From NCBI RefSeq assembly GCF_913055165.1, contig NZ_CAJXJS010000013.1, positions 1 through 64,000 of the forward strand: a stretch of 64,000 nucleotides of DNA. The letters are read 5' to 3'. The notes under the pieces are model-generated. The model ran no database searches, had not been told where the DNA came from, and was given only the letters and a program-made list of their open reading frames with translations. This document shows, piece after piece, positions 2,701 to 4,562 of this stretch (position 1 is its first letter; the number at the start of each line of letters is the position of its first letter). A program made the translations under genes and the position numbers. The DNA comes from an uncultured Devosia sp. (GTDB lineage Bacteria; Pseudomonadota; Alphaproteobacteria; Rhizobiales; Devosiaceae).

Positions 2701-2723
2701 GTGCTACGCAGCTGGAAAAATTG

Positions 2724-2754
2724 AAAAGGGCGCGGAACAATCCGCGCCCTTTTT
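2724..2754 (+). terminator. Rho-independent terminator of infB
   Basis: A GC-rich stem (GGGCGCGG / CCGCGCCC) with a short AACAAT loop is preceded by an A run and followed by TTTTT. It lies 24 bases after the infB stop, a textbook intrinsic terminator. Confidence 0.9.
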
Positions 2755-2780
2755 GCTGAGCGGGTCACCATTATTGAACC

Positions 2781-3965
2781 TTACCCCAGGGCCTGAACTG
2801 CCAACTGCAACAAGCCGACGGCACCGCCAATGGTACTGACAATTATGATCGCCTCCCAGAGCCGGGCCTGCCATTTGAGCCTCGCATGTAAACCCCAAAC
2901 TTTCAAAGTTTCAGGGGCACCAAAATAGACGGTGAATCCGCGTCTACGTACAGTGACAAGAGAAATGTTTTCGTGACCGATCATCTCCCTGTTCTTGGAG
3001 AATGCCACAAGGCCAAACGGTCCCTGGAATTCTGCTACCGAAAGTATCTTGGATAAAGCTGCTCGGCTTTCGGCAATGGTTTGCATGTGACTCTGTTCAA
3101 GTGCGGCAACTGCTTGTGAAATAACATGCATCGCCAGCACCGATGACAGGGATACTTCCTCTCCTGCGTCATCTTTGCCTAAAATTTCCTGTAGGTATTG
3201 TTGCACGATTGGATTGTAGTCATCGTACTTGATGTCACAGACCAATGTAGTTCCAACAGCGGAGTGGCGCAGATAATTGCGGTTTGAACCAAATGAATAA
3301 ATCGGTGAGGGTAGCCGTCGTGAGCGCAGTTGCTCAATCAACCAGGTAGACTCATGGCTCGGAGCACAAATAACGACTGGGTGGCGTCCGGTGTCCATCG
3401 GTATGTCGACCTGCCCTATACTAAAGGTGACGTGATTGAGGTGGAAGTCTAGGTCGGCTGCTGCCTTGGTTAGATCGTCAAGTAAACCGGACGCATAGGA
3501 GTCTGGATGATCATCAAGGCTAAAAACCGTCAGATCGCGGCCACTGACGGTTTGCTGAATAAATCGCAAAAGGATCATGACCCGCCTGAAGTCAGGCGTG
3601 GTCACGCGGAATAGTTCGTTTTGATGTGGCCCCAGCAATGCCGTACGTGTTGCAAAGGACAGAATGAAGGGCACTTTGGCAAAGTCTGGGTGATTGGCAA
3701 TCACTCCAGCGCAGGCGGAGTCGGAAGGTCCCACAATGGCCAAAGCACCAGCGCTAAGGCACCGACGAACGGCGTCGGCTACCAGTGATGGTTCGGAGCG
3801 ATCATCCTCAATTACGAGCTCGACCGGCCGCCTTTGGCCCGTCAGGGCCTTACCGGTTTCCCAGGTGAGATACTTTTCTAGAGAGGTGACAATACCGAGC
3901 CCTTGACGCTTACGCTGTCCAGTTAGTGGTGCCACTACTCCGATCTTAACAGGAGTGCCGCTCAG
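2781..3965 (-). CDS. Periplasmic-binding-protein-like receptor, signal-less, C-terminal membrane anchor
   Basis: The fold resembles the leucine/isoleucine/valine-binding family (Peripla_BP_6): an opening KIGVVAPLTG, then VGPSDSACAGVI and a second lobe. No signal peptide is visible. The C-terminus has one hydrophobic helix (about residues 369-390) preceded by basic residues, so the ligand-binding part probably faces the cytoplasm. The first conventional start, GTG at 3935, would delete the first beta strand of the fold. I prefer CTG at 3965, which overlaps the stop of the upstream acetyltransferase gene as CTGA and gives 394 residues. No ATG, GTG or TTG lies between the upstream in-frame stop and 3935. 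Base composition is lower in GC than the neighbours, suggesting transfer. There is no ABC permease nearby, so a transport role is unlikely; a sensor role is inference. A frameshift separating one fused protein is the alternative. Confidence 0.7.
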   Translation of the reverse strand: MSGTPVKIGVVAPLTGQRKRQGLGIVTSLEKYLTWETGKALTGQRRPVELVIEDDRSEPSLVADAVRRCLSAGALAIVGPSDSACAGVIANHPDFAKVPFILSFATRTALLGPHQNELFRVTTPDFRRVMILLRFIQQTVSGRDLTVFSLDDHPDSYASGLLDDLTKAAADLDFHLNHVTFSIGQVDIPMDTGRHPVVICAPSHESTWLIEQLRSRRLPSPIYSFGSNRNYLRHSAVGTTLVCDIKYDDYNPIVQQYLQEILGKDDAGEEVSLSSVLAMHVISQAVAALEQSHMQTIAESRAALSKILSVAEFQGPFGLVAFSKNREMIGHENISLVTVRRRGFTVYFGAPETLKVWGLHARLKWQARLWEAIIIVSTIGGAVGLLQLAVQALG

Positions 3966-4408
3966 GGCAGAGCTCGAGAATAGATTAGCGTTTTAGGAGT
4001 CTCTAGAAGCACTGTGTAGCCGTGTCTTTCGTAAAAGGATCGAGGGTCGCGTTTTGGAAGCAGGGTCTCATATAATTGGCTATTGCTCAAGATCATCGCG
4101 GAGAACCCATCCACGATTGCGGCCTGATGAACCAATCGGATGAGTTCAGAGCCAATTCCAAGGTTGTGTTGCCTATGGTCGACATAAATATTGCAGAGTT
4201 CCAGCACATCAGGAGCAAAACTATTGGAATAGCAGAACCCGACTAGAGTGTTGCCAAGCGTCGCTTTGAAGGCGGGGTAGTCCGATGCGAGATGGGCGAT
4301 GCGGGCGGCCGTTTGGCCGGTGCGCATATAGCCGCGATAGAGCGCTAGGACATCTTCTGCGTCGTTCCCCGTCATTGGCGAGAAAAAAACATTGTGGTGG
4401 TTAGACAT
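3962..4408 (-). CDS. GNAT family N-acetyltransferase
   Basis: A 148-residue GCN5-related acetyltransferase, the usual single-domain length. Motif A is visible as DHRQHNLGIGSELIRLV (about residues 77-93), the acetyl-CoA pyrophosphate loop, preceded by the strand VLELCNIYV and followed by FYERHGYTVLLE near the C-terminus. The acceptor is unknown. It is the first gene of a two-gene unit: its TGA stop overlaps the probable CTG start of the receptor-like gene, implying coupled translation. The ribosome-binding site is weak. Base composition is lower in GC than the flanking housekeeping genes, as in its partner, so the two probably arrived together. Confidence 0.85.
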   Translation of the reverse strand: MSNHHNVFFSPMTGNDAEDVLALYRGYMRTGQTAARIAHLASDYPAFKATLGNTLVGFCYSNSFAPDVLELCNIYVDHRQHNLGIGSELIRLVHQAAIVDGFSAMILSNSQLYETLLPKRDPRSFYERHGYTVLLETPKTLIYSRALP

Positions 4409-4459
4409 AGCGCACTCAATTCAAAAGCAGTCGAGCACCAACATAAACCGTAACGGTGC

Positions 4460-4498
4460 AAAGAAAAGGCCCGCCTCCAATGCTGGAGAGCGGGCCTT
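4460..4498 (-). terminator. Terminator of the L,D-transpeptidase gene
   Basis: On the minus strand the inverted repeat AAGGCCCGC / GCGGGCCTT is followed by TTTTCTTT. It lies about 65 bases after the stop of the L,D-transpeptidase gene and upstream of the acetyltransferase gene, insulating the two. Confidence 0.75.
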
Positions 4499-4562
4499 GG
4501 TGTTGCCGGGAGCGGGTGACTACGGTGGGGGTCCGCCGCCGGCAATTTCTTGAAACTGAGGT

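What the first reader, a model, noticed from the sequence alone, without database searches (positions are those of the whole stretch)
2781..4408. Translationally coupled GNAT acetyltransferase and cytoplasmic ligand-binding receptor with a tail anchor
Directly seen: an acetyltransferase gene followed by a Peripla_BP_6-like gene with no signal peptide, one C-terminal hydrophobic helix preceded by basic residues, and no ABC transporter nearby. Family knowledge: such binding folds normally work in the periplasm with permeases. Inference: a membrane-attached cytoplasmic small-molecule sensor paired with an acetyltransferase, perhaps a signalling, resistance or defence pair. Lower GC than the neighbours and insertion beside infB suggest transfer as a unit.
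Basis: partly seen in the sequence, partly recalled or inferred. Interest (0 to 1): 0.75.

Follow-up and report, generated by a model that had tools for sequence, protein, structure and literature searches.

The report
Acetyltransferase paired with tail-anchored cytoplasmic receptor
Two overlapping genes, an acetyltransferase and a small-molecule receptor that seems to sit inside the cell hooked to the membrane by its tail, recur as a pair in two distantly related bacteria, which suggests a rare sensor-enzyme module.

Summary
Window 2781-4408 (minus strand) carries a GNAT acetyltransferase gene followed, with a CTGA overlap, by a type I periplasmic-binding-fold gene. The second protein has no room for an export signal and ends in one hydrophobic helix. 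GC is 51-52%, against 62-67% for neighbouring genes. The pair sits in a variable spot between infB and a YkuD gene; none of 29 same-genus loci examined shows it beside YkuD. Searches of relatives, plasmids, phages and IMG/VR found no close relative of either gene. A phylum-wide sample of 398 genomes found one true homologue, and it is the same pair: Neptunicella marina (a different class) has GNAT and receptor genes in the same order, overlapping by 29 bases. The receptors are 26% identical (E 4e-32), the GNATs 37.5% over 112 residues. The 78 other receptor-like ORFs scored look like ordinary exported binding proteins at their N-termini. A pair kept together across such divergence implies joint function. 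Most likely the receptor binds a small molecule in the cytoplasm and controls, or shares a ligand with, a GNAT held at the membrane, as AmiC controls AmiR or an ACT domain controls a fused GNAT. Ligand, acceptor, complex formation and any defence role are unproven. Only two instances were found.

The parts
3962..4408 (-). GNAT-family N-acetyltransferase, 148 aa, first gene of the pair
   Evidence: Pfam Acetyltransf_7 E 1.6e-8; homologous to the first gene of the Neptunicella pair, 37.5% identity over 112 aa, E 4e-24 (alignment)
2781..3965 (-). cytoplasmic type I periplasmic-binding-fold receptor, 394 aa if read from the CTG at 3965-3963; second gene of the pair
   Evidence: Pfam Peripla_BP_6 E 4.7e-14; model pLDDT 79.4, pTM 0.81, best PDB match 3td9 E 2.6e-20; homologue in Neptunicella E 4e-32
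3962..3965 (-). CTGA overlap of the GNAT stop codon (TGA) and the presumed CTG start of the receptor
   Evidence: sequence read on the minus strand; no ATG, GTG or TTG in frame between the previous in-frame stop and the conserved KIGVV strand
2796..2852 (-). C-terminal hydrophobic helix of the receptor (residues 372-390), presumed tail anchor
   Evidence: Kyte-Doolittle 19-residue mean 2.17; Neptunicella homologue 2.83 at its C-terminus; low model confidence here (residues 354-394)
2724..2753 (-). intrinsic-terminator-like hairpin between the convergent receptor and infB genes
   Evidence: consensus scan, 13 pairs; 3 such sites in the region against 2.4 expected from shuffles, so not significant as a class

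Best explanation
A two-protein, ligand-controlled acetyltransferase module at the inner face of the cytoplasmic membrane. Shown by sequence: two overlapping genes, GNAT first and receptor second, found as a pair in two classes; a receptor with a leucine-binding-protein fold (predicted), no room for an export signal and one C-terminal hydrophobic helix. Inferred: the receptor's two-lobed domain faces the cytoplasm, is tethered by its tail, binds a small molecule (amino-acid-like or another small carboxylate, judging only from its superfamily), and its closing on the ligand switches a GNAT docked on it, so that acetylation of a protein or metabolite depends on ligand level. It would work like AmiC-AmiR (a binding-fold protein whose ligand changes its hold on a partner) combined with AAPatA (an amino-acid-binding domain that activates a GNAT), but in trans and at the membrane.
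For: Same order and gene overlap in the window genome and in Neptunicella marina, of a different class. In six receptor searches of 151, 385, 398, 196, 303 and 317 genomes (samples that overlap in part) the strong matches were only the window's own gene and G839 = Neptunicella. Both receptors have too few residues before the domain for a signal: the open frame leaves 11 and 17 residues up to five residues into the domain, against at least 24 in 78 other receptor-like ORFs, all of which have a hydrophobic stretch there (minimum 1.09). C-terminal hydropathy is 2.33 and 2.94 against at most 1.29 in 77 of the 78, L063 being the exception at 1.99. Receptor residues: 101 of 394 identical overall, 13 of 25 in five strand-end loops that line the cleft in this fold; 3 of 349 circular shifts reach that. 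Precedents: AmiC releasing AmiR on binding acetamide (PMC5259723, passages); ACT-GNAT enzymes activated by Asn or Cys (PMC6434083, abstract and outline).
Against: Only two instances, so covariation or an interface cannot be tested. No evidence of a physical complex. The GNAT could act on a metabolite with no contact to the receptor. The CTG start is unusual. I chose the cleft loops from the model after seeing the alignment, such loops are often conserved in this fold, and with a sixth loop added the signal weakens (14 of 31; 10 of 349 shifts). The tail itself is weakly conserved (5 of 23 residues identical) and modelled with low confidence. If 25 residues of the domain are included in the hydropathy score, the paired receptors (1.26, 1.00) lie closer to the lowest of the others (1.41). 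No dedicated signal or topology predictor was available.
Confidence: 0.4

Rival explanations
1. Metabolite modification with its own sensor: the GNAT N-acetylates a small amine (an amino-acid-like toxin, antibiotic or signal), and the receptor binds the substrate or the acetylated product as a sink or sensor, with no direct control of the GNAT.
For: The weak GNAT matches in the PDB and NCBIfam include small-molecule acetylating enzymes (phosphinothricin, spermidine or diamine, aminoglycoside acetyltransferases); those in NCBIfam are far below the family cut-offs. The binding fold belongs to small-molecule binders; sporadic, accessory distribution.
Against: RimI, a protein acetyltransferase, matches about as well or better, so the substrate class is open; a sink or sensor needs no membrane tail.
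Confidence: 0.3
2. Defence or conflict module: the receptor senses an infection-linked small molecule and either releases a toxic GNAT or acts through its membrane tail.
For: Foreign composition in the window genome, variable chromosomal spot, two-gene sensor-plus-enzyme layout, rare and sporadic distribution.
Against: No PADLOC match, no defence gene identified among the neighbouring ORFs scanned, not found in phages, plasmids or IMG/VR. GNAT toxin-antitoxin families were not tested one by one.
Confidence: 0.12
3. A degenerate binding protein: an ordinary ABC-type binding protein that lost its signal peptide and landed next to an unrelated GNAT.
For: Superfamily membership is that of ABC binding proteins; odd CTG start.
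Against: A homologue in another class has the same lack of signal, a hydrophobic tail and the same GNAT partner, with near full-length similarity.
Confidence: 0.05

Closest known systems
AmiC-AmiR of Pseudomonas (AmiC: type I binding fold used as a sensor; fold and cytoplasmic location recalled)
   Same: A binding-fold protein works without a transporter and controls a partner protein encoded in the same operon (PMC5259723, passages).
   Different: The partner is an antitermination factor, not a GNAT; AmiC is soluble and belongs to Pfam Peripla_BP_5 (both recalled) rather than Peripla_BP_6.
AAPatA (ACT-GNAT) amino-acid-regulated acetyltransferases of actinobacteria (PMC6434083, abstract)
   Same: A small-molecule-binding domain coupled to a GNAT.
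   Different: There the sensor is an ACT domain fused in cis; here it is a separate, membrane-tailed type I binding fold. Regulation is not shown here.
Leucine/branched-chain amino-acid ABC binding proteins (LivJ/LivK; Peripla_BP_6)
   Same: Predicted fold and the nearest solved structures (3td9, 4gnr).
   Different: No signal peptide, a C-terminal hydrophobic helix instead, and no ABC transporter gene identified nearby.
Membrane-linked receptors with this fold (L063; L129 in a second genome of Neptunicella's genus group)
   Same: Binding domain plus C-terminal hydrophobic segments.
   Different: Those have an N-terminal signal or transmembrane segment and are larger; no homologue of this GNAT lies in the L063 locus held, and L129's neighbourhood was not scanned for one.

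Membership tests
GNAT acetyltransferase | GNAT Pfam domain above the gathering score | tested here: met
   Acetyltransf_7 35.2 bits against 27, Acetyltransf_1 30.3 against 20.7; Neptunicella 39.4 and 36.7
GNAT acetyltransferase | acetyl-CoA loop motif [Q/R]xxGx[G/A] (motif recalled) | tested here: inconclusive
   Neptunicella QNSGLG fits; the window has HNLGIG, off at the first position (read)
Peripla_BP_6 / type I binding fold | Pfam score and fold | tested here: met
   53.3 bits against 31.7; Neptunicella 31.9 against 31.7; Foldseek to 3td9, TM-score 0.71 by query length
ABC-transporter substrate-binding protein | export signal | tested here: not met
   No room for and no hydrophobic segment before the domain in either receptor, while all 78 other ORFs scored have one; hydropathy only, no signal predictor
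ABC-transporter substrate-binding protein | permease or ATPase genes nearby | tested here: not met
   None identified among the window ORFs scanned with Pfam, nor by my reading of the ORF translations of the 18 kb Neptunicella locus
AmiC-like regulator | AmiR-type antiterminator partner | tested here: not met
   Partner is a GNAT
AAPatA | ACT domain fused to the GNAT | tested here: not met
   No ACT hit at E up to 0.01; the GNAT is 148 aa alone
Known anti-phage defence system | match to a PADLOC model | tested here: not met
   0 matches for both window proteins at E up to 0.1
Tail-anchored membrane protein | single C-terminal transmembrane helix, N-terminal domain in the cytoplasm | tested here: inconclusive
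   Hydropathy and preceding positive charge fit in both; topology needs experiment

The most novel reading that the evidence does not exclude
A previously undescribed kind of signalling module: a cytoplasm-facing, tail-anchored receptor with the fold of glutamate and natriuretic-peptide receptor ectodomains gates a partner GNAT in trans, giving ligand-dependent acetylation at the membrane, and it moves between bacterial classes as a unit.
Probability: 0.3. Interest if true: 0.75.

Novelty: new variant of a known kind. Interest (0 to 1): 0.5.

Why it matters
Type I binding folds in bacteria mostly work outside the cytoplasm with transporters. A conserved cytoplasmic, membrane-tailed version coupled to an acetyltransferase would be a new way to tie small-molecule sensing to acetylation. 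The pair is small and easy to express, so the idea can be tested directly. Its extreme rarity limits its general importance.

Tried and rejected
Programmed -1 frameshift fusing GNAT to receptor: rejected as the main reading. By eye there is no slippery heptamer at GCT CTG CCC TGA, and the Neptunicella genes overlap in a different relative frame with an ATG start for the receptor. A base error or start-codon change in this assembly (123 contigs) cannot be excluded.

Searches that led nowhere: single-protein scans of genome contigs and IMG/VR for the receptor, of IMG/VR for the GNAT (33), for the two-row alignments and for the Neptunicella receptor; these depend on short exact peptide patterns and miss divergent members. 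Plasmid and phage tblastn for both window proteins and both Neptunicella proteins gave no match. With the E limit raised to 10, plasmids gave 159 and 39 records with weak matches; the 20 listed for each were ABC binding proteins, GNATs or unannotated stretches, with one row annotated as a transposase and one as an AAC(3)-XI acetyltransferase overlapping a histidine kinase. The GNAT model was poor (pLDDT 55.3) and was not used. NCBIfam gave no family for either receptor. PHROGs gave only weak acetyltransferase or unknown families for the GNATs and none for the receptors.

Literature: in the rows listed by searches (0 papers; 20 of 117,171; 10 of 21; 3 of 3; 8 of 16) I saw no paper describing such a pair; this covers only the held open-access library and those terms. 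One search was to look up aromatic-acid binding proteins and search 78 to look up Neptunicella; only listings were seen. I considered reading ligand chemistry from single cleft residues (for example, loss of the acidic residue that holds an amino group) but dropped it, because the alignment in that loop is uncertain. In an earlier score of the N-terminus the value 0 for the window receptor was a default for a stretch too short to score; one search replaces it.

Full report
What is there. On the minus strand of window 2781-4408 lie two genes. The first (3962-4408) encodes a 148-residue GNAT acetyltransferase. The second encodes a protein with Pfam Peripla_BP_6 (E 4.7e-14) and ANF_receptor (E 1.4e-8) similarity. 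The ORF list starts it at a GTG at 3935, but its first beta strand (KIGVV) lies upstream of that. The only plausible start before the strand is a CTG whose last two bases are the first two of the GNAT stop (CTGA, 3965-3962). The protein would then have 394 residues.

Export and anchor. No strongly hydrophobic stretch begins in the first 42 residues (best 19-residue mean 0.38). One lies at the C-terminus (residues 372-390, mean 2.17, net +2 charge in the 20 residues before it). A fold prediction with 31 distant relatives gave pLDDT 79.4 and pTM 0.81, with residues 354-394 below 50. Its best PDB matches are leucine-type binding proteins (3td9, E 2.6e-20, TM-score 0.71 by query length); natriuretic-peptide and metabotropic glutamate receptor ectodomains come further down (ranks 20 and 32).

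Place in the genome. GC is 0.51-0.52 against 0.62-0.67 for the neighbours, and GC3 0.53-0.56 against 0.80-0.82. A YkuD match was found in 61 of 61 same-genus genomes including this one, and loci were fetched for the best 30 matches, one of them the window's own. In the other 29 loci, none carries GNAT or receptor within 1500 bases of the YkuD gene; infB is in reach in 21 of them and pnp in 28. In the 8 without infB in reach the pair could lie further off, but a receptor search of 151 relatives, many of the same genus, found no close homologue, and neither did a GNAT search. Where infB is in reach, the infB-YkuD gap runs from about 320 to 1300 bases and holds different genes in different species: an AAA_33 protein, an Stf0 sulphotransferase, DJ-1/PfpI proteins and others (the output was cut). 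It is a variable spot, and this genome's pair is one occupant.

Relatives. Searches of 151 relatives and 385 same-class genomes found, apart from the window's own gene, only weak matches (best E 6.6e-8 and 1.9e-9). Of 398 genomes sampled across the phylum, one, G839, gave E 4.4e-32, the next best other than the window's own being 2.4e-9. G839's contig has the same length (325,043 bases) as NZ_JACNEP010000004.1 of Neptunicella marina S27-2, an alteromonad of the Gammaproteobacteria.

The second pair. In Neptunicella a 161-residue GNAT gene (L087:936-1421) is followed by a 396-residue receptor gene (L087:1393-2583, ATG start) that overlaps it by 29 bases, or 20 if the next ATG is used. The GNATs are 37.5% identical over 112 residues (E 4e-24), sharing the string FAPDVLEL.NI.V. 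The receptors are 26% identical over 369 residues (E 2e-31); the genome search match reaches residue 389. Residues from 326 on, taken alone, still match (34% over 53 residues, E 3e-5), although the last 23 residues share only 5 identities. The Neptunicella receptor also has no strongly hydrophobic N-terminus (best 0.50) and ends in a hydrophobic helix (2.83) preceded by net +4 charge. Its flanks differ from the window's: a gamma-glutamyltransferase by my reading of the translation and an M15 peptidase. Its GC (0.43 and 0.41) is only slightly below the neighbours' 0.44-0.48.

Rarity. Profiles of the two receptors found no third member among 196 genomes of G839's family, 303 of its class and 317 of the window's order; the other matches there (3, 2 and 13 genomes) are weak and partial. 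A scan of the collection of 84,980 species genomes with two short patterns from the GNAT alignment gave 94 candidate stretches and one relative, Neptunicella marina; it would miss divergent members. A second genome of the same genus group, G834, gave as best receptor match (E 7.8e-10) a different protein with what reads as a signal peptide; its GNATs were not searched. Plasmids, phages and IMG/VR gave nothing.

Control. Among the loci held, 87 ORFs matched the receptor profile at E up to 1e-4, 81 after removing duplicates; three of these are the two paired receptors (the window's twice, once truncated). The other 78 have at least 24 residues from the start of the scored region to five residues into the domain, all with a hydrophobic 15-residue stretch there (minimum 1.09). 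The paired ones have only 11 (too short to score) and 17 residues (-0.27), so there is no room for a signal. With 25 residues of the domain included the contrast is smaller: 1.26 and 1.00 against a minimum of 1.41. At the C-terminus the paired ones score 2.33 and 2.94; the others reach at most 1.29 except L063, a larger membrane protein, at 1.99. These are crude hydropathy scores.

Interpretation. A pair that keeps order, overlap, cytoplasmic receptor and hydrophobic tail across two classes at 26-37% identity is very unlikely to be chance, so I take it as a functional module (about 0.9, my judgement). The mechanism is inference. The cleft seems retained: 13 of 25 residues identical in five strand-end loops against 101 of 394 overall, and 3 of 349 circular shifts do as well; with a sixth loop it is 14 of 31 and 10 of 349. 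I chose the loops after seeing the alignment. Working precedents are AmiC, whose binding of acetamide releases AmiR (PMC5259723, passages read), and ACT-GNAT enzymes activated by Asn or Cys (PMC6434083, abstract and outline read). I therefore favour a receptor that controls, or shares a ligand with, a membrane-held GNAT. Nothing points specifically to defence.

Noticed in passing
window 2701-4562 and loci L032-L060: The gap between infB and the YkuD gene is a variable spot in this genus (about 320 to 1300 bases where infB is in reach), holding an AAA_33 protein, an Stf0 sulphotransferase, DJ-1/PfpI proteins and, in L037, a gene in a lower-GC gap (0.54) with no Pfam match.
   Followed up: partly
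L129:592-2370 and L063:1-2295: Larger proteins with the same binding fold (ANF_receptor or Peripla_BP_6), an N-terminal signal or transmembrane segment and C-terminal hydrophobic segments: possibly another class of membrane-linked receptor.
   Followed up: no
window 3965-3963: The receptor gene seems to start at CTG overlapping the GNAT stop codon; no ATG, GTG or TTG is available upstream of the first conserved strand.
   Followed up: partly
L104:9490-10077: In Neptunicella the receptor gene overlaps by 4 bases a convergent M15 peptidase gene that is itself sporadic: 3 of 30 genomes including Neptunicella have a match at E up to 1e-20.
   Followed up: partly
window 2784-3965 (profile positions 48-157): The second-best PDB sequence match to the two-receptor profile is a plant glutamate receptor (GLR3.4, 7lzh, E 1.2e-5).
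   Followed up: no
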